From contig CALXAV010000012.1 of NCBI GenBank assembly GCA_944386385.1, positions 1 to 55,970 on the forward strand: 55,970 bases of DNA, written 5' to 3'. The position numbers were made by a program, and so were the translations under genes. This document shows, piece by piece, positions 3,060 to 55,970 of this stretch. Source of the stretch: an uncultured Clostridia bacterium. GTDB lineage: Bacteria; Bacillota; Clostridia; TANB77; CAG-508. The number at the start of each line of letters is the position of its first letter. Position 1 is the first letter of the stretch. The notes beneath the pieces were generated by a model. It did not search any database and was not told the origin of the DNA. It worked only from the letters and a program-made list of their open reading frames with translations.

Positions 3060-3258
3060 GTAATAATTGAATTAAAGTTCACAAATATATTTATTTTTAC
3101 TTAATGAATAGTAAATTATATTTATATATTTATTACATTATTATATCAAATATTAATCATAGAAACATAAATTAGATGAAACAAAAAATATAGAATAGAA
3201 CAAAAAATAGCTACCATAAATTAAGAAGACTACACCTTCTTAATCTATCTAGCACAAC
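3060..3258. other. AT-rich intergenic stretch without a gene
   Basis: The region between the lysC promoter and the spo0E-like gene is extremely AT-rich and has no credible reading frame. The one visible structure is a 9-bp stem, ATTAAGAAG/CTTCTTAAT, at 3220-3244. It lacks a close T-run and could be a weak extra terminator for the spo0E-like transcript. Confidence 0.5.
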
Positions 3259-43103: not shown

Positions 43104-45551
43104 TTAGTTTTCTTTTTTTCTAAATTTACATACTAAAACACTCATATCATCTTTTGCTATTCCATAGTTATTATCTATGGCTTCTTCTAATATCAAGTTA
43201 GCTATTTTTTGTGTATTAGTTGTTTCTATATCTTCTAATAAATATTTAATCCATAATTCTTTATTTTTATATTCTACATTTGAATCTAGAATTCCATCTG
43301 AGCAAAGTACCATTATTTCTCCTGTTTCTATATCTCTATCAAATGTTTGAATTTTACTTCCTTCTATTATTCCTGTTGGTAAAGAATTAGATTTTACCAT
43401 TTGAACTTTCTTTCCATGTTTTATATATGTTGGACATGCTGCACTTTTTATAAATTCAACATTTCCTGCATATAAATCTACTATTGCTATATCTAATGTT
43501 GCAAAACTTTCTTTATTTTGGTTAATTAATGCATTATTTATCAGATCTAGTGATATATTTTTATCAAAGCCTGATAATAATAAGTTTTCCAATAACCTTA
43601 AAGCATTTGAACTACTATCTCTTGCTTCTTTTCCGCTTCCCATCCCATCACTTATAGCTACTAAATATTTTCCATCTTTTAATCTAATTGTTAAAGTACT
43701 ATCACCTGAAAGTTTGCTTTTTGATTTTGTCATATTTGCAATTCCCATAGCCATTACATATTTATCATCTGATAAAAAGCTTAATTTCTTACCAACATTT
43801 GCTTCTTCATTTAATACTATTTTCTCTCCTAATACTTTAGTAAGTATTTTTTCTATTGTCTCTATTTTTACTGTCTCTAAGTTTTCATTTAGATAAATTT
43901 CTATTATAAATCTATTTTCTTTTTTAATAGCTATATCTTGAACCTCTATTTCCTTTTGTTCTAATAATTCTATTATTTCTTGTTTTTCTCTTACATATTT
44001 CTCTTCATTTACTATGTCATCTTCTAATCCTTTTGCCATGCTCTCTATTGCTTTTGACACACCTTTTAGTTGCTTTTCTACGTTTTTCTTGTTTTGAGCA
44101 ATTTTCTTTTTCCAGATAAAATCTGATTTAGCTACTTTATATGAAACATTTATTGTTCTTACTATTTGCATGATATTTTCTTCTAAGCGTTTGCTTATAT
44201 CTTTATCATCAAAACCTATTATATAACTATTACAATCTGCAAATATTTTTAATAAATCTTGTCTTGTTATTTCTTGTTTATCAAGTAATAAATTAAATAT
44301 TTTATCAATAATTTTACCATTTACATCTGCTATATCATCATATAACATATTATCTTTATAAGGTTCTAAATTGTTTAACAATTCTGATATAAATATTTTC
44401 TTATTTTCGTCTTGCTCTTTACTTACTTCTTCTTTGCCTACTGGCTCTTCTTTGTATGTTGTCGCCATCTGATTTATAGCTTCTGATACATTGTTTAAGC
44501 TTTCTGCAACTTCCTTACTTTTATTTAAAGCTCTTCCGGAAGTATAAGGTAAAAATTTTGAATTTCCTATAAATTCTTCTAAGTCAATTTGTAAGTTCTT
44601 TGGTACTAATAATAATCCGATTGATGCAACTAATATCTCTTTAAAATGTATTAATTCTACTGTATATCCATTTGATACATATGCTAAAACTATATTTCCT
44701 AAAGCAAAACCTACAACTACTCCTATTTTTCCAAACCTGTTTAATATCCCTGCTATCATTCCTGATATTGCATATGCAGCTATCATTATTGGTTCATTAT
44801 TACTAATAACACCTAAAGTTACACCTATTGTCACTCCTGATGTTGTTCCTACTAATATTCCATTTTTCCAACCCAAAATCATTACAATTAATATACTAAA
44901 TACATTTCTTATGCTAAATCCATATATACTTGAGCCTCCAAATGCTGCAACTGCTATTGCAAATAATAGACTTGCTCCTATTACTTCTTCTATTGAAAAA
45001 GCCTTTCTCTTATAAAACTCTTGAACAACAACTAATGAATTTACAAATATCTTGTAAAATACTAATGCTATTATTGATAATGTTATTACACTTAATACAT
45101 CATATAATGTAAATACTGACATTAGTATCTTTACTAATCCTATTAAAAAACAAGATATAAATACATTTTTTCCTACTTTTATTTTTTCATTTCTTTCTTG
45201 TTCATTATAACGTGGTTTTACTATAAATAATGTTGCTATCATTACTAAAGAAGTTAGTAAATATTCTACCGCTCCACCAACTCCAAATTTTATTAAGTTA
45301 CCAAGTAGCGAAATCACTACTACCCCTAGAGCTGGAACAGAAAATGCTAAACAAGCTCCTAATAAACTTATACTAAATATCGAAAACTCTCCACCTAAAG
45401 AAACAAATGATAACATAAATGCTACAATATATATTACTATATTTTCTTTAGCAAATACTTTTCCTAATATATTAAACTTGCTTTTTTCTTCACTTCCTAA
45501 ATCTTTTTTACTATTTAAATCTATTGTATCTTCACTTAAATTTTGAAACAT
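43104..45551 (-). CDS. spoIIE: Stage II sporulation protein E (PP2C phosphatase)
   Basis: SpoIIE dephosphorylates the anti-anti-sigma factor SpoIIAA to activate sigma F in the forespore, and it interacts with FtsZ at the polar septum. The 815-residue protein has about ten membrane segments in residues 40-320, a central coiled regulatory region (about 340-590) and a C-terminal PP2C domain. The domain has AISDGMGSGKEARDSSSNALRLLENL near 628-650 and LCSDGILDSN near 755. ATG 45551 is used, with GAGGTGG before it. It is strong evidence that the organism forms endospores. Confidence 0.95.
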   Translation of the reverse strand: MFQNLSEDTIDLNSKKDLGSEEKSKFNILGKVFAKENIVIYIVAFMLSFVSLGGEFSIFSISLLGACLAFSVPALGVVVISLLGNLIKFGVGGAVEYLLTSLVMIATLFIVKPRYNEQERNEKIKVGKNVFISCFLIGLVKILMSVFTLYDVLSVITLSIIALVFYKIFVNSLVVVQEFYKRKAFSIEEVIGASLLFAIAVAAFGGSSIYGFSIRNVFSILIVMILGWKNGILVGTTSGVTIGVTLGVISNNEPIMIAAYAISGMIAGILNRFGKIGVVVGFALGNIVLAYVSNGYTVELIHFKEILVASIGLLLVPKNLQIDLEEFIGNSKFLPYTSGRALNKSKEVAESLNNVSEAINQMATTYKEEPVGKEEVSKEQDENKKIFISELLNNLEPYKDNMLYDDIADVNGKIIDKIFNLLLDKQEITRQDLLKIFADCNSYIIGFDDKDISKRLEENIMQIVRTINVSYKVAKSDFIWKKKIAQNKKNVEKQLKGVSKAIESMAKGLEDDIVNEEKYVREKQEIIELLEQKEIEVQDIAIKKENRFIIEIYLNENLETVKIETIEKILTKVLGEKIVLNEEANVGKKLSFLSDDKYVMAMGIANMTKSKSKLSGDSTLTIRLKDGKYLVAISDGMGSGKEARDSSSNALRLLENLLLSGFDKNISLDLINNALINQNKESFATLDIAIVDLYAGNVEFIKSAACPTYIKHGKKVQMVKSNSLPTGIIEGSKIQTFDRDIETGEIMVLCSDGILDSNVEYKNKELWIKYLLEDIETTNTQKIANLILEEAIDNNYGIAKDDMSVLVCKFRKKEN

Positions 45552-45755
45552 CCTTACCACCTCTTAAATTTTGATAAGCTCATTTTACTACTTGTCCTTT
45601 GTGGTTTTTGTCTTTTCTAGTCTGCTAAACTAAAAAAGTTTTTTACAAATTTTTATATATATTTTTTATTTTTTTCATAATAATATAATATACGATTTTT
45701 ATTTTATTACAGAATATCGAAAAAAGCAATATTTTAAAAAAAGGTTGTAAAAAAA

Positions 45756-46025: not shown

Positions 46026-49000
46026 TTATAATACTTTCTTCTTAATGAATACAATTCCTGTAGCTAAGATTATAAATGAGCTAACTCCTAAAATAATATA
46101 AGGTATATAGTTTCTATCTTCACCAGTTGGTCCTGTTACTGTTAGGTAAATATAGTCATCATCATATCCTGTTTCTCTTCCTGTTTCACTTGGTACATAA
46201 TCACCTGGTGTTGTATATTCTCCATCATGTTCCATTCTTCTATTTATTACTTCGTTTACCTCAATATCATTTTCGAATATTAAGTCTTCTTCATTATTAG
46301 ATAATAATCTAGAAACTACTAATGGTACTCTTCTTTCTCCTTCTCCTGGTCTCATGTCATCAAATGCTGATGTTTGAAGTATTTGATTATATTCTTTAAT
46401 TGCTTTTAATGCATCTTCTGATAATAATCCTTGGTTAAACAAATCTGTATATTCTGTACTAGAAATTTGTTGCCAGTTACTTGTATTGTCTGGATTATTA
46501 TTATCATACATTAATCCATTTGATAAGTAATCAAATATGCTAGATATAGTTGCTAATTTCCAACTATTTCTATTTTGTGCTTCTCCATAAATATAGTAAT
46601 CTCTATCATTATAATCAATTTCTGCATCTGAATTATCAACTACTATTTCATATCTGATAGTTAATGTAGCACCTTGTAATAACTCACTGTCTAATTCAAC
46701 ATGAACATTACCATCTGGTAAGAATCTTAAGTGTTCAATATTTCCTTCTCTTGGATCTCCTTCAGCTACTACTTGTCCATTTGATAATTTTACTTGAACA
46801 TAAACTATTTCTTTTCTAACATCAATATTTTGAATTGGTCTTCTTATAATTCCCAAATCTATATTATCAAATACAAACTTAAGTTGTTCACCATATCTGC
46901 TTATATTATCTAAGTTAACATCATAATCCATTTTTATATCAAATAATCTTGTATTTGATTCGATAGCTTGTAAGTCTGGACTATCTTCTTCTATTGATGT
47001 TCCGTAATTATATGTCTTATCTTCAATATAAGTTCCACTCTCACTTTGTCTAGTTCTATATTCTATTATATCTTCTATTCTTGAGCCATCTTCTCTTATT
47101 CCCGCTGTATCTACAGCATCTGACCATCTACTTACGTTTGTTTCTCCTGAAGTTTCAGATCTATACCAGTAATCATTCATGTTTTCAGCTGCTTCTTTAT
47201 CTCCGCCTCTGTAAATTGTTGATTTATATTTTTCTGGATTTAGATTTTCTTGACTTCCATCTGATTTTACTATTATACTTTGATCTCCATATGTATATCT
47301 TATTACATATTTTCCTGGTATTATTCCAGATATTTCATAATTACCATCTGAGTCTGTATTTGCAACAGCTGTTTCTGGTTCTTCTACATCATTTCCAGAT
47401 ACATCATCTTTCTTATATGTTGCGGCAACTCCTATTGGATTTCCGCTATCATCACATTCTAATAGTTCTACTTTTACTTGGCTTACTACATTTTCACCAT
47501 TTACGTAGATACCATCACCTTTTCTTTCTTTTAATAGACCGTTTTCTAAGTTTCCAGTTCTATCTAATAATTCTTGAATTGCATTGTCTTCCCATACTGT
47601 TCCTCTTATTACTCTTCCTTCACTTCCGCTTACTTCTAGTATGAATGATGGTGCCTTATCTGTATCATCCTCATATGTTTCTAAGTTTGCATCGTCATTG
47701 TTGTTATTTTTATTTTCAGGAATTGTTGAACCTGGTCTAGAGTCTCTATCTACTCCTCCATAATGTACACTATAATTTTCATCTGAGTATGTTGAATATG
47801 ATGTTATTTCAGATACAGAATCTAATGTTACTCTACCATTTAATATTGAATTTACCGCATCATTTTGTAGTTTATATCTAATATATACTACCTTTTCAGC
47901 TTGATGTCTTATATTCTGATTTGTTTCTATTGTTACTTTCTTAAATCCATTATTATTATATCTTGTATCTTCTGTATAATTTAGTGCTACGTAGTTTGAT
48001 GTGTTTTCATCTTGTATATAAACACTATCTACATCATATCTATTATCATAGTAATTTACAATCTCATTTGCTGTTGAATATAGATTTGTTGACTCATTTC
48101 TTATTCTTACTTTATATGTTACATATATCTCTAATTTTCCTTCGTTTCCTTCTTGCATATTATATACAATGTCTGATGAATATACTGTTCTTCTGTATGT
48201 TGCTGATCCATATTTATTTTCAAATCTTACACCTACTCCAAAGTCCTCTTCAAATCCGTCTCCAAATTCTTCTGTATTAACAGTTCTTTGGTCATAATAG
48301 TATGTATGATTATATCCATTTAATCCTATTTCTGCTGTATAAACATCTTGTACTATAGCTAAATCTGGTTGTTCTCTTTCTTGTAATCCTAGGTTAATTT
48401 CAGTTATTTCTGTTAATCCACTAGCTCTTATTTCATCTGGTGATTTTATGTCTGATAAGTATCCTGTATATCCTTGATTTACTGAAAGGAACGCATCTCT
48501 TGTATTTGATGTTATTATATACTGTTCTTCTGTATTATTTATTGGGAAGTTTTGTCCATCATATCCATATACAGAATTTGGTCCATAGTTTAATTTACTT
48601 GTTCTGTCTGCGTCTACATTTTCATCATAATTTAAGTCATATGTTTTTTGTCCATTTTCATCAAGTGCTTCTCCCACAGAGTCTGTTACTCCTTGATGTG
48701 TTATTGTTGAATAATTATTATTAAACTCTGTTCTCTCATTTGTATTTTCTATTGCTCTAGTTCCATTATAAGCTTCAACCCTGTTTGCCGGATCTGCCTC
48801 TCTAGTTAGGTCTGCATCTACAATTGGAACTGATGTGTAACTCATTCCATTATAAGAGAATTCTATATAATAATTTTGTAATTCATCAATTAAGACATCT
48901 ACCATTTCGTATGTTCCATAATCTTCTTCATTTGAGCTTGTTAATGTTTCTGTTACTAATGGTCCATTTTCTACTTCCCTAAATTGAACATAATTTCCAT

Positions 49001-52000
49001 TTCTATCTTTTAATCTTACTGTTACATTAGCTACTAGTTTATCTGGATTTGGTTCATCATTACCTGTTGCATTATATCTATAATCTCTTGAATCAGTTTT
49101 ACCACTTGTCATATCTTCCCATACTTTTCCTGATAATTTAATGTATTTTCTCTTGTTACTAAATGTAAGCGTATTTTCTGAAGCATTAGACAATTCTGCT
49201 AAATTATTAAACTTGAATTTCTGTGCAACACTTCCATTTATTTCAAATGTTTGTACATTTTGAGTATTATAAACATTAGTAGTTGTAGCTCCATTAACAT
49301 CTAGTGTAAAGTTCTCATTAGATCTTGGATACAAGTTATAATATCCGTCTCCTGTAGATGTAATTTTCCATTGTTGGTTAGTTTGGTTGTTTACAAAATA
49401 TACCTGTACATTTGAATAGTTTTGAGTAATTACATGACCATTTTGTACATCAAGAACTTTATTTGATGCTAAGTTTACTATTCTATAATATCCTCCACCT
49501 AGGTATCTTACATACCATTGTTGTGCTAAAGAGCTATTTCTTTGATATATTGCAACATTTGATGAATTATATGTATACGCACCTGTTACTTCCACTACAT
49601 AATTTGAATTTGCTCCTATTTCTATTTCATAAGTTCCGTCTGGTATAGTTTTTTGGTCGTCATATATTATGCTACTTTCTCTTTCTGTATCATATGACCT
49701 TTGTCTTGTTACTTCTATTATAGCATCTTTTCCATTTCCTGATGTTTGTCCATTATCCCACTCTATATAATCATCATCTATATCATAACCATAATTGTTA
49801 TCTCCTACAGATACCTCTGTTACTGTATATGTTCCAGTTCTTATGTTATAAATTTCTATTTGTCCATTACTATCTGTTTTAAATTCTGTTGCAGAATTTA
49901 TATCAGTAGTTGTTCTCATACTACCTAAGTAGATTGTTCCCGATGCCTCGCTTAAAGCCTGGCCATCTTCGCCTACTCCTATTACATACTGTCCATTAGA
50001 ATCTCTAAGTTTAAATCCTACATTTTCTAAAGGAGTATTATTGTTATTTGAATCTCTTTTTACAATCTGTAATATACCAGTATGTTTTTCGTTTGTCATT
50101 ACAATTAGTTGTTCCATTCCGCTATATGTGTATATTTCTAAAGTTTGGTTTATTTCTTCTTCATATCCATAATCATTAGTTGCTGTTTCTGTTAATATAT
50201 ATCTTCCTGGTGCTAAGTTATCAAAATGATATTCACCATTTGTTGTAGTAAATGATTGACTATATGTTCCATCATCTTTAACTAATGTTCCTTGAATATT
50301 TACTCTTTTATCTTTATTATCTTTATCTACTTTTAAGATGTCTAAAGAAGCATTGAAGTTTGTCCATTCTACACTAGCTTCTTTTGTTATCTCTTTTTCT
50401 TCTCTATGAGTAATAAATTCATATAAATTCTTAGTTCTAACTCTTTGTTGTACGTATCCGTCTGCTTCTGGTGCATAATATATAGCATAAGCTTTGTATC
50501 CTTCTACATATTCACCTTTTTCTGTTTGTGAAATTGTTATTTTTACTCTAGAAACTCCACCTTCCATTTGAGCTACTGGCATTCTTAAATAGAAAGTTGA
50601 TGTTCCTGTTACCATCATATCATTTCCATTTTCGTCACAGCTTGCATATCCTGTTAATTGATTTCCTACTTTGTCATAAACTTCATAAGTATAAGTTCCA
50701 TTATAAGAACTCTCTACTTGGAAAGGTCCTAATATATAATTATCATCTATCTGTTTTATTCCTATATTATCATTTAATTTATTTAATGTTAAAGTAAAAT
50801 CTGAGTTAAAGCCACTCATATCAACTTTTCCTTCTTCATAGGCTCCAACTAAAGTTCTATCTCCAAAATATCTAGCATCCGCACTACTATCAATACAAAC
50901 TCCACCTTCATCTTCTGGTCCTCCAGCAAATGTCCAAGATTGATATAAATGACCCGTACATACTGTTCCTTCTGGAGCGTCTCCATGAGCCGCGTGTGTT
51001 CCCCAACTACCACATATTGGGCATTGTAAATTAGAAAATGTCCAATCTGTTGTTCCATGAGGTACATATCCTCCTCTTGTTACCCAGTTACATCCTCTGA
51101 TATTTTTAAAATATGCTGTTTCTGGTGCTTCAGCTGCGAATACACCGCCTCCTAATGAAACCACTGTCATAAACAATATTAAGAATAAACTGATTTTCCT
51201 AAATATACTATTTCTAAGCTTTTTATTTCTAATTATTATAAATGCTATAATTCCAAATGCAATAATACCAATTATTGCAATTGATATATATATAATGCCT
51301 CCTGTACTTACTGATATGATTAATTCAGCTTGCGAAGAGTTGTCTGATGTATTTTGTTCTTCTACTTCACCATTATTTCCTATCTCAGCTCTATTTATAA
51401 AGTTTCCTGTTGATTCTGATGACATTGTCTTAGTTAACACTAAAACAACTTCTTTACTCTCTCCAGGTTGTATACTTTGATTAGCTAAACTTCTATTTAC
51501 AACATTATTATTTGAAACGCTTGTCCAAGACATGTTGTTACTAGCTGAAAACTCCATTCCGTCTGGAACATAATCTATTATTTCTCCTACAGTTGCTGGT
51601 ACTGTTCCTTCATTTGTTATAACTATTCTATATTTTGCAGTTACTATTGCCCCTTCTATTTCCTTGGCCCTAATTTCAACTCTACCAAGTTTTGTATTAT
51701 CATAAGAATAACTTTTCGTTCCACTTCCTGTTTCTACAGAAACTTCATAAATGTATTTATCTAATTTTAGGTTATAAGCTCCTTTTTCTATTAAACCTAT
51801 ATCCAAATTATCTATTGCTTGATTTAAAGTTATTTGATCTGTAACACCTACATTTACTCTATCTCCATTTAATGTTATAGTTTGAGCTGTAGCATCAGAG
51901 TTTGAACTTTCCGGTACTCCGCTAGCTTTATATTGTGTTATTGAATAAGTTTCAGTATTATATCTAAATACTACAATATAATTTCCTTGTTCTATATTTG

Positions 52001-55000
52001 AAAATGTATATCTACCATTATTAGTCGTCGTACTTGCTTTTACATTACCTGAGTCTGCCATATCAACTAACATTACTTGTAATCCACTAATTAAATTTTC
52101 ATCATTTTGTCTATTACCATCACCATTTATATCATTCCAAGAAATTCCTGATATACTATATGTTGCATCACTTGGATTATCTGGGTTATCTGGGTTATCT
52201 GGGTCGTCTGGATTATTTGGATTATCCGGATCATCTGGGTTGGTTGGCTCACTTGGTCCGTAACCTCCGTTAGTATTATATGGTACTATTGTATGGCTAA
52301 TAACATTTGATGATTTAGTTGTTATTCTATCGCCCTCTACTGTTGCACTATTTTCTATTTCTGTTTCTTCATATACAAATCCTGCTGTAACTTTTATACT
52401 TATAGTAATTGATTTTTGATATGGTATAAGGAAACGTAAATCAATATCTGGTAATTTGTTTCCATTTTCATCATATTGTGCGCTACTTATATCTATAGTT
52501 TCTTCAGTTAATTCGTCTGCAAGTTCCATTGTATCCTCGTTAATTACTGGATAATACTGATATGTAGCACTTACCGGTTGTACATTTTCTGGTAAGTAAT
52601 CTGTTACATCAACAACTATATTATTATAAAGTTCAAAACTTGAATTTGGTCTACCTGTATTTGTAACTGTTATATTATAAGTTATCTCGTCACCATAGTT
52701 AACTTCTTCACCTTCATTGTCAGATGTCATTACAATTGAAGCACTATCTCCTGTTAGTATTACTCTATTTTCATTTGTCTTGAAAGTATTATTTGCTGTA
52801 TTTATTGTCACATTGGATATTACTTCTAATTCATTAGAACCTTGTTCTTCTTCTAATTTTGATGTATCTATATATCCTTGAATATCAATTATTCCTGTTT
52901 CTGTTGTAGTTATTGAAACTGTATTATCATCTTCATTATATTCTACTTCACTTTCATCTAGTATTCTTCCATTAATTATAGTTAATTCATAATCAAAATC
53001 ATCTGAAGATTGGAATTTTATAGTTACTTCTTCATTTTCTGGGTTTTCTAATTGAACTGTATAATACCATTTATCAACTACACTATCCATATGAGCTTCT
53101 AAGAATGCTTTAACTGTTGTTTTGTTTACTAAATTAGTTAAACTATAATCTGTTACTTCTGTGCTATCAATAAATACTTTAACGTTACTTTCAATTGATT
53201 TTTCCGTTACACTTTCTTCTAAATCATCTATTCTAACTTCATAAAATTCATCAACACTTTGTCCTGCTGCTAAAGTCCCTACATTTATTTCTTTTTCAGT
53301 TAAATTTTCATCAAATGTATATTCATATACTCCTCCATATGAATAATAATCTGCATTTAATTCACCATAAGTTGTGCCGTCTGGAATAGTTCCCACTATT
53401 CTTACGTTATTTATATCTTCTTCTGTTGTATTAACAATTTTAACATTATATTTTATATATTCTCCTTCATAAACAACATCATCATTTTTTAATTCTGTAT
53501 CTCCTCTTACTGGTTGAATATATACATTTAGGCCATCTATTTCTTCTTGCGTTGCAGCCATTATCTGTGTTCTCACACTTTTTTCTACTTCTTCTGCTAT
53601 TGTATCTATTAAGTTACTATCATTGTTTGATATTATTCCACCTTCTGTAGTATTTGTTGTACTTTGAATTTCTTGAAAATCTTCTATGGTAATATCTTTC
53701 TCTATATTTCCTTCTTCTTTATTACCAAAGATTCCCTCATTTGTATAATATAGATTTATTTTTCCATTCGTGCTTTGTATGTCTTTTTTCAATATTACTT
53801 TTGCTTGTATTTTTAAATTAGTTATTAATCCTAGATTATTTTCACTGTATTGTGTTTGACTTCCTTTTAGATTGCCAACTATGCTTAAACTTCCATCTTC
53901 GTTTGTTTGTACTTCTAGATTTTCTAATGTTAATCCATTTGCATAAACCAGTTGAGTATCATCTAATATTACTTTTTCAACTTCTGATGGTAAATCTATT
54001 CTTATGCTTGGATTTTTAAATAAATTATATTGTTTACTATTTGAATTTAAATAAACGTCAAAAGTTACTTCATTTTGTTTTTCATTTGTCCAATTTGTAT
54101 TATCTACATTTAATGATACATTAGTTGTAGCATCTTTAACTTCTATTGTATTATCTTTTTCTGTTCTATAACTTTCTTCTTCTACAATTTGTTTTTCTGT
54201 TGTAGGCTCACTATTTAAACCACTTATATTTCTTGTTTGTATTTCGCTTTCTACTTCTACTTCTTTTTCATTTATTCCTATTATACTTAATTTTGTATTT
54301 ATATCTTTATCATCAATATTTAATACATCGCTTTTAATTTTCTTTACATTCTCTATATGTAAAAATCCTTCATTAATAATATCACTTGTTTTTATAGTGA
54401 TATTATTTACATCTTCTGGATAAACAACTAAAGCTTCTCCATTTTCATTAAATCCATTATTATTATCTAAAGTTGCTACAAGATTGTTATTTCCGTCAAA
54501 GATTTCTATCTTTCCGTTTTCACCTAAAAGGTCCAAAAAATCTTCTTTTAATATTTTTGTACTTTTATAATATATATCACCAGAATTTACAAAAGCATTT
54601 TCCTCTGTAATGTTAATCTTTTGATGTGCTTCTTTTTTACTTATCATTATCTCATTATTTTCTGTATATTCTGTATCATATGTAGTTCCATTTATAATGT
54701 TAGATTTGATATATCCATTGTATATTTCACTTCTTGTAGTATCAACTGAAGTTAAATCTCCAAAATCATCTGTTACATTTTGTGTTAAAAATCCTTCACA
54801 ACTTACTTCTCTGTTATCATCTGTGAATAAATTTGCTTTATAATTTACCTCAATTGATATAGTTCTTTCTGGTTTTTCTTGTGAATAAGTATCATAATAA
54901 GCAACAACTACAAACTTGTCTCTATCTGTATCTTCAGGTTTTGTATTGTATATTGGCTCTCCATCTTCATTTTCGTTATTTGTTCTGATTACCAAATTTC

Positions 55001-55379
55001 CTGAATTAGAGTCATAACTGTAATCTTCTTCTACATTACTAGTTTGTCCGTTTGTAACTTTAGTTCCTTCACTAATTACCTTAACATCATATGGATACTT
55101 TCCATCAATCTGATTCAAATTAACATTTATTTCAGAATTTCTAATGGCTGTATATTCATCTCCATATTCAATTCCAGTTCTAATACTGTATTGTACTAAA
55201 GTACCTTGTTCTCCATTAGCTAATTGATAATTTATATATTTATCAATATTGCCTTCAAGGATACCTTTTTCCTCATTGTCTGCTCCAAAACTTGTTTTAG
55301 TAAAAAACTTACTCATAACTAATGCTAAAATTAGCAAAATAGTTACTGTAAATATTCTTCCTAAGTTACTTTTTTTCAT
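46026..55379 (-). CDS. Giant multidomain surface protein (two surface proteins fused in frame)
   Basis: This is a 3117-residue exported adhesin-like protein. Signal peptide: about 1-33. Part A: unknown beta-rich region; DUF11-like domains (~610-750, 880-1030, 1200-1355); Asp/Asn/Pro linker (~1045-1075); SdrD B-like domain (~1076-1180); membrane helix (~1360-1385, GGIIYISIAIIGIIAFGIIA) and basic loop. Part B: a second signal-peptide-like helix ending VFAAEA (~1390-1415); a Cys/His cluster (~1429-1480, CPICG); SpaA/Cna-B-like domains (~1680-1880); a ricin-B lectin domain (~1914-2058, QQW repeats); two more SdrD B-like domains (from ~2081 and ~2592); a beta-rich stalk; and a C-terminal membrane helix with KKKVL. 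The tail motif TGPTGEDRNY before that helix is sortase-signal-like but not LPXTG. A strong GGGGGAG site precedes the ATG. Ligands are unknown. Confidence 0.88.
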   Translation of the reverse strand: MKKSNLGRIFTVTILLILALVMSKFFTKTSFGADNEEKGILEGNIDKYINYQLANGEQGTLVQYSIRTGIEYGDEYTAIRNSEINVNLNQIDGKYPYDVKVISEGTKVTNGQTSNVEEDYSYDSNSGNLVIRTNNENEDGEPIYNTKPEDTDRDKFVVVAYYDTYSQEKPERTISIEVNYKANLFTDDNREVSCEGFLTQNVTDDFGDLTSVDTTRSEIYNGYIKSNIINGTTYDTEYTENNEIMISKKEAHQKINITEENAFVNSGDIYYKSTKILKEDFLDLLGENGKIEIFDGNNNLVATLDNNNGFNENGEALVVYPEDVNNITIKTSDIINEGFLHIENVKKIKSDVLNIDDKDINTKLSIIGINEKEVEVESEIQTRNISGLNSEPTTEKQIVEEESYRTEKDNTIEVKDATTNVSLNVDNTNWTNEKQNEVTFDVYLNSNSKQYNLFKNPSIRIDLPSEVEKVILDDTQLVYANGLTLENLEVQTNEDGSLSIVGNLKGSQTQYSENNLGLITNLKIQAKVILKKDIQSTNGKINLYYTNEGIFGNKEEGNIEKDITIEDFQEIQSTTNTTEGGIISNNDSNLIDTIAEEVEKSVRTQIMAATQEEIDGLNVYIQPVRGDTELKNDDVVYEGEYIKYNVKIVNTTEEDINNVRIVGTIPDGTTYGELNADYYSYGGVYEYTFDENLTEKEINVGTLAAGQSVDEFYEVRIDDLEESVTEKSIESNVKVFIDSTEVTDYSLTNLVNKTTVKAFLEAHMDSVVDKWYYTVQLENPENEEVTIKFQSSDDFDYELTIINGRILDESEVEYNEDDNTVSITTTETGIIDIQGYIDTSKLEEEQGSNELEVISNVTINTANNTFKTNENRVILTGDSASIVMTSDNEGEEVNYGDEITYNITVTNTGRPNSSFELYNNIVVDVTDYLPENVQPVSATYQYYPVINEDTMELADELTEETIDISSAQYDENGNKLPDIDLRFLIPYQKSITISIKVTAGFVYEETEIENSATVEGDRITTKSSNVISHTIVPYNTNGGYGPSEPTNPDDPDNPNNPDDPDNPDNPDNPSDATYSISGISWNDINGDGNRQNDENLISGLQVMLVDMADSGNVKASTTTNNGRYTFSNIEQGNYIVVFRYNTETYSITQYKASGVPESSNSDATAQTITLNGDRVNVGVTDQITLNQAIDNLDIGLIEKGAYNLKLDKYIYEVSVETGSGTKSYSYDNTKLGRVEIRAKEIEGAIVTAKYRIVITNEGTVPATVGEIIDYVPDGMEFSASNNMSWTSVSNNNVVNRSLANQSIQPGESKEVVLVLTKTMSSESTGNFINRAEIGNNGEVEEQNTSDNSSQAELIISVSTGGIIYISIAIIGIIAFGIIAFIIIRNKKLRNSIFRKISLFLILFMTVVSLGGGVFAAEAPETAYFKNIRGCNWVTRGGYVPHGTTDWTFSNLQCPICGSWGTHAAHGDAPEGTVCTGHLYQSWTFAGGPEDEGGVCIDSSADARYFGDRTLVGAYEEGKVDMSGFNSDFTLTLNKLNDNIGIKQIDDNYILGPFQVESSYNGTYTYEVYDKVGNQLTGYASCDENGNDMMVTGTSTFYLRMPVAQMEGGVSRVKITISQTEKGEYVEGYKAYAIYYAPEADGYVQQRVRTKNLYEFITHREEKEITKEASVEWTNFNASLDILKVDKDNKDKRVNIQGTLVKDDGTYSQSFTTTNGEYHFDNLAPGRYILTETATNDYGYEEEINQTLEIYTYSGMEQLIVMTNEKHTGILQIVKRDSNNNNTPLENVGFKLRDSNGQYVIGVGEDGQALSEASGTIYLGSMRTTTDINSATEFKTDSNGQIEIYNIRTGTYTVTEVSVGDNNYGYDIDDDYIEWDNGQTSGNGKDAIIEVTRQRSYDTERESSIIYDDQKTIPDGTYEIEIGANSNYVVEVTGAYTYNSSNVAIYQRNSSLAQQWYVRYLGGGYYRIVNLASNKVLDVQNGHVITQNYSNVQVYFVNNQTNQQWKITSTGDGYYNLYPRSNENFTLDVNGATTTNVYNTQNVQTFEINGSVAQKFKFNNLAELSNASENTLTFSNKRKYIKLSGKVWEDMTSGKTDSRDYRYNATGNDEPNPDKLVANVTVRLKDRNGNYVQFREVENGPLVTETLTSSNEEDYGTYEMVDVLIDELQNYYIEFSYNGMSYTSVPIVDADLTREADPANRVEAYNGTRAIENTNERTEFNNNYSTITHQGVTDSVGEALDENGQKTYDLNYDENVDADRTSKLNYGPNSVYGYDGQNFPINNTEEQYIITSNTRDAFLSVNQGYTGYLSDIKSPDEIRASGLTEITEINLGLQEREQPDLAIVQDVYTAEIGLNGYNHTYYYDQRTVNTEEFGDGFEEDFGVGVRFENKYGSATYRRTVYSSDIVYNMQEGNEGKLEIYVTYKVRIRNESTNLYSTANEIVNYYDNRYDVDSVYIQDENTSNYVALNYTEDTRYNNNGFKKVTIETNQNIRHQAEKVVYIRYKLQNDAVNSILNGRVTLDSVSEITSYSTYSDENYSVHYGGVDRDSRPGSTIPENKNNNNDDANLETYEDDTDKAPSFILEVSGSEGRVIRGTVWEDNAIQELLDRTGNLENGLLKERKGDGIYVNGENVVSQVKVELLECDDSGNPIGVAATYKKDDVSGNDVEEPETAVANTDSDGNYEISGIIPGKYVIRYTYGDQSIIVKSDGSQENLNPEKYKSTIYRGGDKEAAENMNDYWYRSETSGETNVSRWSDAVDTAGIREDGSRIEDIIEYRTRQSESGTYIEDKTYNYGTSIEEDSPDLQAIESNTRLFDIKMDYDVNLDNISRYGEQLKFVFDNIDLGIIRRPIQNIDVRKEIVYVQVKLSNGQVVAEGDPREGNIEHLRFLPDGNVHVELDSELLQGATLTIRYEIVVDNSDAEIDYNDRDYYIYGEAQNRNSWKLATISSIFDYLSNGLMYDNNNPDNTSNWQQISSTEYTDLFNQGLLSEDALKAIKEYNQILQTSAFDDMRPGEGERRVPLVVSRLLSNNEEDLIFENDIEVNEVINRRMEHDGEYTTPGDYVPSETGRETGYDDDYIYLTVTGPTGEDRNYIPYIILGVSSFIILATGIVFIKKKVL
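52160..52250 (-). repeat. Asp/Asn/Pro-rich coding repeat in the giant protein
   Basis: Tandem 9-nt units encode repeats of (D/N)NP and DDP (PDDPDNPNNPDDPDNP and onward). They form a flexible linker before the SdrD B-like domain. Such units can vary in number by slippage. Confidence 0.75.
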
Positions 55380-55658: not shown

Positions 55659-55970
55659 TTATTTATTTCCTAAAGCTCTTCTTTTTATTAAGAATATTCC
55701 TACTCCTAATATTACTAACACTGCTACTCCAATTGTAATTGGTAATATGAATGCTCTATTTTCACCAGTTGCTGGTGTTACGATAACTGTTTCTGCTGTA
55801 TCGTCATCTGTTTCTGTTTTTCCTGTACCTGGAATATAATTTCCTGGTGTTTCTTCTGGTTCAGAACCTCCTGTTTTATCTAATTTATTAATCTCTGTTT
55901 CATTATCTATTGAAATATCATCAGATGTTGTTAATATCTTAGATACTATTAAGTCTACACTTGCTGTTTG
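55659..55970 (-). CDS. C-terminal end of a second surface protein (partial, paralogue of the giant protein)
   Basis: Only the last 103 codons are in the window; the 5' part lies beyond 55970. The segment aligns with the tail of the giant protein: VDLIVSKILTTSDDISIDNETEIN corresponds to VPLVVSRLLSNNEEDLIFENDIEVNE there. PGNYIPGTGK matches PGDYVPSETG. VTPATGENRAF matches VTGPTGEDRNY, and a membrane helix (ILPITIGVAVLVILGVGIFLI) with KRRALGNK ends it. It is therefore a tandem paralogue anchored the same way. PATGE resembles a sortase signal with the leading Leu replaced. Confidence 0.85.
   Translation of the reverse strand, partial: QTASVDLIVSKILTTSDDISIDNETEINKLDKTGGSEPEETPGNYIPGTGKTETDDDTAETVIVTPATGENRAFILPITIGVAVLVILGVGIFLIKRRALGNK

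What the first reader, a model, noticed from the sequence alone, without database searches (positions are those of the whole stretch)
51120..51310. In-frame fusion of two complete surface proteins with an internal anchor and an internal signal peptide
Seen: in the 3117-residue protein, a membrane helix with a basic stop-transfer tail (about 1360-1388) is followed at once by a second basic-hydrophobic segment ending VFAAEA (about 1390-1415), like a signal peptidase I site. A new ectodomain follows. No ATG, GTG or TTG with a ribosome binding site lies at the junction. Inference: either a genuine double-spanning surface polyprotein is made and possibly cleaved into two products, or two adjacent genes fused recently. 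The topology (outside, in, outside, anchor) would tether part A by its C-terminus and expose part B independently.
Basis: partly seen in the sequence, partly recalled or inferred. Interest (0 to 1): 0.75.

Follow-up and report, generated by a model that had tools for sequence, protein, structure and literature searches.

The report
Conserved bacterial two-adhesin surface polyprotein
A gut bacterium makes two giant surface proteins as one continuous chain, with a membrane anchor and a second secretion signal in the middle; many related species keep this layout, and the chain is probably cut into two proteins after export.

Summary
The 3117-residue ORF (46026-55379, minus) holds, at 51132-51314, an anchor helix, a basic loop and a signal-peptide-like segment ending VFA|A, with no usable internal start.

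It is neither an assembly error nor recent. In the same genome a paralogous A/B pair is two genes, 22 nt apart. Among 185 distinct A ends in the loci fetched, 60 read in frame into B, 106 end in a stop, 18 belong to a distant class, 1 was unclassified. Fused copies form one clade in two of three trees (against: four changes). At least 58 of 210 species of the genus show a stop-free match through the junction (hand count).

The second segment still looks like a signal peptide: a signal peptidase (-3,-1) motif follows the hydrophobic core in 55 of 60 fused copies (shuffled mean 32.0, none of 2000 as high).

Best reading: an old gene fusion kept as a surface polyprotein, most likely cut by signal peptidase I into A, anchored by a helical hairpin, and B, a thioester-domain-like adhesin with a sortase-type tail. 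The cut is inferred, not shown.

The parts
46026..55379 (-). fused A-B gene, 3117 residues
55281..55379 (-). N-terminal signal peptide of part A (residues 1-33)
   Evidence: hydropathy
51846..52154 (-). SdrD_B domain of part A (1076-1178)
   Evidence: Pfam; SdrD chain 10ps
51324..51641 (-). last DUF11 domain of part A (1247-1352)
   Evidence: Pfam; in 30 of 30 members of A2
51300..51314 (-). SVSTG motif (1356-1360); xTG kept in A ends of the genus, possible processing signal
   Evidence: (TG in 87 of 88 A ends)
51231..51299 (-). internal anchor helix (1361-1383)
51195..51230 (-). basic cytoplasmic loop RNKKLRNSIFRK (1384-1395)
   Evidence: net charge +3 or more in 60 of 60 fused copies
51135..51194 (-). 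internal signal-peptide-like segment (1396-1415) ending GGVFA
51132..51137 (-). predicted signal peptidase I site between A1415 and A1416
   Evidence: inferred site
50316..51131 (-). first domain of part B (1417-1688), thioester-domain-like; Cys1495 and Gln1645 conserved
49770..50072 (-). SpaA-type domain of part B (1770-1870)
49272..49643 (-). ricin-type lectin domain of part B (1913-2036)
46029..46133 (-). C-terminal tail of part B: GPTGE, helix, KKKVL (3083-3117), sortase-type sorting signal by layout
55671..55958 (-). C-terminal end of another B-type gene upstream (38% identity to the end of part B)

Best explanation
Two adjacent surface-protein genes, A then B, were joined in frame long ago in this genus and the join was kept. 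One chain is now made: the first signal peptide exports A, the helix after SVSTG stops transfer, the basic loop stays inside, and the former signal peptide of B starts a second export. Signal peptidase I then most likely cuts after residue 1415, leaving A held by a two-helix hairpin and freeing the N-terminus of B, whose own C-terminal tail has the layout of a sortase sorting signal. Shown: the open frame, the shared junction, the kept motifs. Inferred: the cut, the sortase step and the benefit (equal amounts and joint delivery of the pair).
For: Own genome has a split A/B paralogue. 60 of 185 distinct A ends are fused with the same layout; at least 58 of 210 genomes of the genus show a stop-free match through the junction. 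One clade: 11 fused rows, SH-aLRT 99; 61 fused rows, SH-aLRT 93, after five long-branch rows were left out and one frame-broken row relabelled. (-3,-1) motif in 55 of 60 fused, shuffled mean 32.0, 0 of 2000 as high; separate B signal peptides 92 of 100; control stretch after the A helix 3 of 60. Loop net charge at least +3 in 60 of 60. 34 of 35 longer fused ORFs keep junction and C-terminal anchor and 0 of 35 have any other membrane segment. dN below dS across the junction in 15 of 17 close pairs. Signal peptidase I and 10 sortase-domain matches in the genome.
Against: No proteomic evidence. By a matrix trained on separate B signal peptides the fused sites score lower (median 3.8 against 10.2; shuffled 1.1). 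5 of 60 fused copies lack the motif. The 60 copies are related and some are near-copies, so they are not independent. One tree needs four changes of state. dN was not below dS in 2 of 17 pairs.
Confidence: 0.68

Rival explanations
1. Uncut double-pass protein: the second segment is a signal anchor, so A and B stay joined by a membrane hairpin and are displayed as a tethered pair.
For: Two helices are predicted; the layout works without a cut; fused sites score lower than separate B signal peptides.
Against: A small-residue (-3,-1) motif has no use in an uncut anchor, yet is kept in 55 of 60 against 32.0 expected from shuffles.
Confidence: 0.22
2. A is also released from its hairpin: S[VI]xTG is a noncanonical sortase signal in mid-chain, so both halves become wall-linked separately. 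This is an added step to the best explanation, not exclusive of it.
For: TG directly before the helix in 87 of 88 A ends, with S and I or V in front in most, kept in fused copies; 10 sortase-domain matches in the genome.
Against: The proline of known LPxTG-type signals is absent in the A motif though present in most B tails. No enzyme was matched to the motif.
Confidence: 0.15
3. B is also made separately by internal translation start at the junction.
For: Some fused copies carry ATG, GTG or TTG near the core.
Against: Only 2 of 60 fused copies have even a weak in-frame Shine-Dalgarno plus start in the loop, against a 7-nt Shine-Dalgarno in 81 of 100 separate B genes. The window has none.
Confidence: 0.03
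4. Assembly or sequencing error that removed a stop codon.
For: The window is a contig of a draft genome (61 contigs).
Against: The same fused layout occurs in relatives from many separate assemblies.
Confidence: 0.01

Closest known systems
Bradyrhizobium FbcH, cytochrome b / cytochrome c1 precursor cut at the c1 signal peptide (recalled; searches found no open paper describing it)
   Same: one bacterial chain holding a membrane part, then an internal signal peptide, then an exported part; thought to be cut into two products
   Different: respiratory subunits of a Gram-negative; here two giant wall-type adhesins with a stop-transfer helix between them
SdrD / SpaA-type surface proteins with sortase tails
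   Same: SdrD_B, DUF11 and SpaA-type domains, C-terminal motif-helix-basic tail
   Different: known ones (from general knowledge) carry one signal peptide and one C-terminal anchor per chain
TIE / thioester-domain adhesins (6fwy, 6fwv)
   Same: best fold match of the first B domain in two searches; conserved Cys and Gln 150 residues apart
   Different: 10-16% identity, low TM-scores; B here is the second half of a polyprotein
viral glycoprotein polyproteins such as those of bunyaviruses (listing and abstract starts only)
   Same: membrane anchor followed by internal signal peptide between two surface proteins
   Different: unrelated proteins, eukaryotic host enzymes

Membership tests
bacterial precursor with internal cleavable signal peptide (FbcH-like layout) | single open frame through both proteins | tested here: met
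bacterial precursor with internal cleavable signal peptide (FbcH-like layout) | internal signal peptide with signal peptidase motif | tested here: met
   55 of 60; window VFA|A
bacterial precursor with internal cleavable signal peptide (FbcH-like layout) | two mature products in the cell | not testable with these tools
   needs proteomics
LPxTG-type sortase substrate (tail of part B) | xPxTG motif, helix, basic end at the C-terminus | tested here: inconclusive
   motif-helix-basic layout present; most relatives have PxTG, the window has GPTGE, where the proline stands one place later
LPxTG-type sortase substrate (end of part A) | proline at the second motif place | tested here: not met
   second place is I or V in most of 88 A ends, window SVSTG
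thioester-domain adhesin (part B) | thioester-domain fold | tested here: inconclusive
   best PDB matches but TM 0.13 and 0.25 by query
thioester-domain adhesin (part B) | Cys and Gln that form the thioester | tested here: inconclusive
   Cys1495 in 29 of 30, Gln1645 in 28 of 28 without gap; bond not testable here
DUF11 / SdrD_B surface proteins (part A) | Pfam models over their cut-off | tested here: met

The most novel reading that the evidence does not exclude
A standing class of bacterial surface polyprotein: one gene encodes two wall adhesins with an internal anchor, possibly itself a noncanonical sortase signal (S[VI]xTG), and an internal cleavable signal peptide, so that two separately sorted adhesins are delivered in fixed ratio at one translocon; it arose once and is kept in over a quarter of the sampled species of one genus.
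Probability: 0.35. Interest if true: 0.75.

Novelty: new variant of a known kind. Interest (0 to 1): 0.6.

Why it matters
Bacterial surface proteins usually have one signal peptide and one anchor per chain. A long-lived fusion that keeps an internal anchor and a working-looking internal signal peptide is a natural test of how the translocon, signal peptidase I and sortases treat signals in mid-chain. The genus holds fused and split versions of the pair, often in one genome, as ready controls. Tools that look for signal peptides only at N-termini will miss the second product.

Tried and rejected
Assembly error and recent fusion: rejected by relatives. Internal start: rejected for lack of a ribosome site. 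In one search minus-strand loci were not turned and its stop calls for those are void; redone. The [FY]C test near the B start was uninformative (64 of 98 separate, 22 of 50 fused). NCBIfam added only a DUF11-type repeat over its cut-off. Five paper searches for bacterial precedents were seen as listings and abstract starts only, in an open-licence library, so a printed precedent is not excluded. The 58 of 210 genomes were counted by hand from the printed, cut match list (bits at least 240, match through model position 224, no stop); I did not look at each.

Full report
What is there. The minus-strand ORF at 46026-55379 encodes 3117 residues. Hydropathy gives four membrane-grade segments: the N-terminus, two back to back at 1350-1388 and 1389-1419, and the C-terminus. 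The middle pair reads SVSTG, helix, RNKKLRNSIFRK, hydrophobic core, GGVFA|AEA. Part A carries SdrD_B and DUF11 domains, part B SpaA-type and ricin-lectin domains. The window is one contig of a 1.98-Mb draft genome in 61 contigs. The 76 named loci found with a fused-junction profile are mostly titled as metagenome-assembled uncultured Clostridia, Clostridium, Clostridiaceae or Eubacteriales (one 'Bacilli'); titles of some name goat, sheep or water buffalo, and 'Lapin' suggests rabbit.

Two genes elsewhere. In the same genome, contig C8 has an A paralogue of 1610 residues that ends in a stop, then 22 nt, then a B paralogue with its own ATG and signal peptide, cut by the contig end. Upstream in the window, 55671-55958 matches the end of part B at 38% identity, so another B-type gene precedes. 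In relatives such as G005:C12 and G003:C9 a separate A gene lies next to a fused A-B gene on one contig, with a separate B between them in the tables.

Fused copies are common. A 533-residue junction query matched 35 of 55 genomes, 35 of 35 in the window's genus and 0 of 20 in other families of the order. A profile of ten fused junctions matched 207 of 210 genomes of the genus; at least 58 of the 210 have a strong match that runs stop-free into the second segment (hand count from a cut list). From the loci fetched, which were chosen as the best matches and so lean towards fused copies, I derived 185 distinct A ends: 60 fused, 106 separate, 18 of a distant class, 1 unclassified. For separate ends a B start was found in 100 of 106, with a 7-nt Shine-Dalgarno in 81 of the 100.

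One origin. On the A-end domain, 11 of 11 fused rows formed one clade among 82 rows (SH-aLRT 99). With 184 rows under a simpler model the fused label needed four changes, and the smallest clade with all 60 fused rows held three rows labelled separate. One of these three is a fused copy with a frame break in the loop; two are separate genes on long branches. After leaving out five long-branch rows and relabelling that one, 61 fused rows formed one clade (SH-aLRT 93) with one change. A single old fusion is the simplest reading; a later re-split of a copy or two is not excluded.

The second segment still looks like a signal peptide. Within 14 residues after the core, [AVST]x[AG] occurs in 55 of 60 fused copies; shuffling those residues gives 32.0 on average and 0 of 2000 trials reached 55. 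Separate B signal peptides: 92 of 100 (shuffled 65.9). The stretch after the A helix in the same 60 proteins: 3 (shuffled 7.6). Three of the five misses have isoleucine at -3 and alanine at -1. Against: a matrix trained on the separate B signal peptides gives fused copies a median of 3.8, shuffles 1.1, separate copies 10.2, so the fused sites are weaker or more diverged. The loop has net charge +3 or more in 60 of 60 (median +5, length 9-22). Of 35 longer fused ORFs, 34 keep both junction and C-terminal anchor, 29 show an N-terminal signal (in the other six the ORF piece begins late), and 0 have a further membrane segment. dN was below dS across the junction in 15 of 17 close pairs, so the junction is read as protein.

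How it most likely works. Shown: one frame, old and kept; stop-transfer and re-export signals; a kept cut motif; signal peptidase I and ten sortase-domain matches in the genome. Inferred: export of A, stop-transfer, second export of B, a cut after residue 1415, and sorting of B by its tail. A would keep a hairpin anchor unless a sortase also acts at SVSTG; TG stands before the helix in 87 of 88 A ends, but the usual proline is missing. The first domain of B matches thioester domains best in two fold searches (models), with Cys1495 in 29 of 30 and Gln1645 in 28 of 28 ungapped rows. B may thus be a covalent adhesin; TM-scores are low and this is a lead only.

Known or new. The nearest bacterial precedent I can name is FbcH of Bradyrhizobium (recalled; no paper seen). 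Searches showed no bacterial adhesin pair of this kind in their listings, which does not prove absence. I rate it a new variant of a known kind.

A separate thing noticed. Frame breaks in relatives fall on CGG codons. The 32 window ORFs hold 0 CGG among 16,063 codons (639 arginine codons). Over the loci scanned, CGG stood in frame 57 times among 537,082 codon positions that follow at least 150 open codons; in 33 of 57 the frame closes within 40 codons while the next frame stays open at least 80 codons longer, against 0.25% for all codons; the opposite shift fits 1 of 57. In 4 of 5 broken genes searched as separate pieces, both pieces matched the same or successive Pfam domains, with one profile position between them in two. 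Arginine tRNAs seen in the window's genome have anticodons TCT, CCT and ACG, none CCG (genome 91.9% complete). A review reports +1 frameshifting at rare CGG_A or UGG_A codons in glass sponge mitochondria (PMC5009743, passage seen), and a code screen reports CGG reassignments in some Firmicutes (PMC8629427, passages seen). This explains why several fused copies look broken, and deserves its own study.

Noticed in passing
relatives' loci, e.g. L173, L185, L162, L124, L052, L147, L132, L134; no case in the window's own ORFs: Apparent genus-wide +1 shift at CGG: 57 in-frame CGG in 537,082 codon positions, 33 of them followed by an early stop while the next frame stays open (0.25% for all codons; opposite shift 1 of 57). 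Broken pieces of transpeptidase-type and SpoIIE genes match successive parts of one profile. The window's 32 ORFs have 0 CGG in 16,063 codons, and no tRNA-Arg(CCG) was seen in its genome. CGG looks unassigned and read with a one-base step. Closest print: glass sponge mitochondria (PMC5009743, passage).
   Followed up: partly
L058, L052, L132, L134, L130, L147, L152, L159, L197: The 9 fused copies whose ORF closes early and whose DNA was printed all have an in-frame CGG just before the break, so these copies may not be pseudogenes.
   Followed up: partly
own genome, 10 places listed: Ten sortase-domain matches over cut-off in a 2-Mb genome, many for its size.
   Followed up: no
L010 (G000:C3), L068, L096, L102, L098: A second, distant class of A-type proteins (D-D-A-P-V before an SxETG-like motif), 19 of 88 A ends, some followed by a protein beginning MNQIL.
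   Followed up: no
window 43104-45560: SpoIIE, a sporulation gene, is the next long ORF downstream of the fused gene.
   Followed up: no
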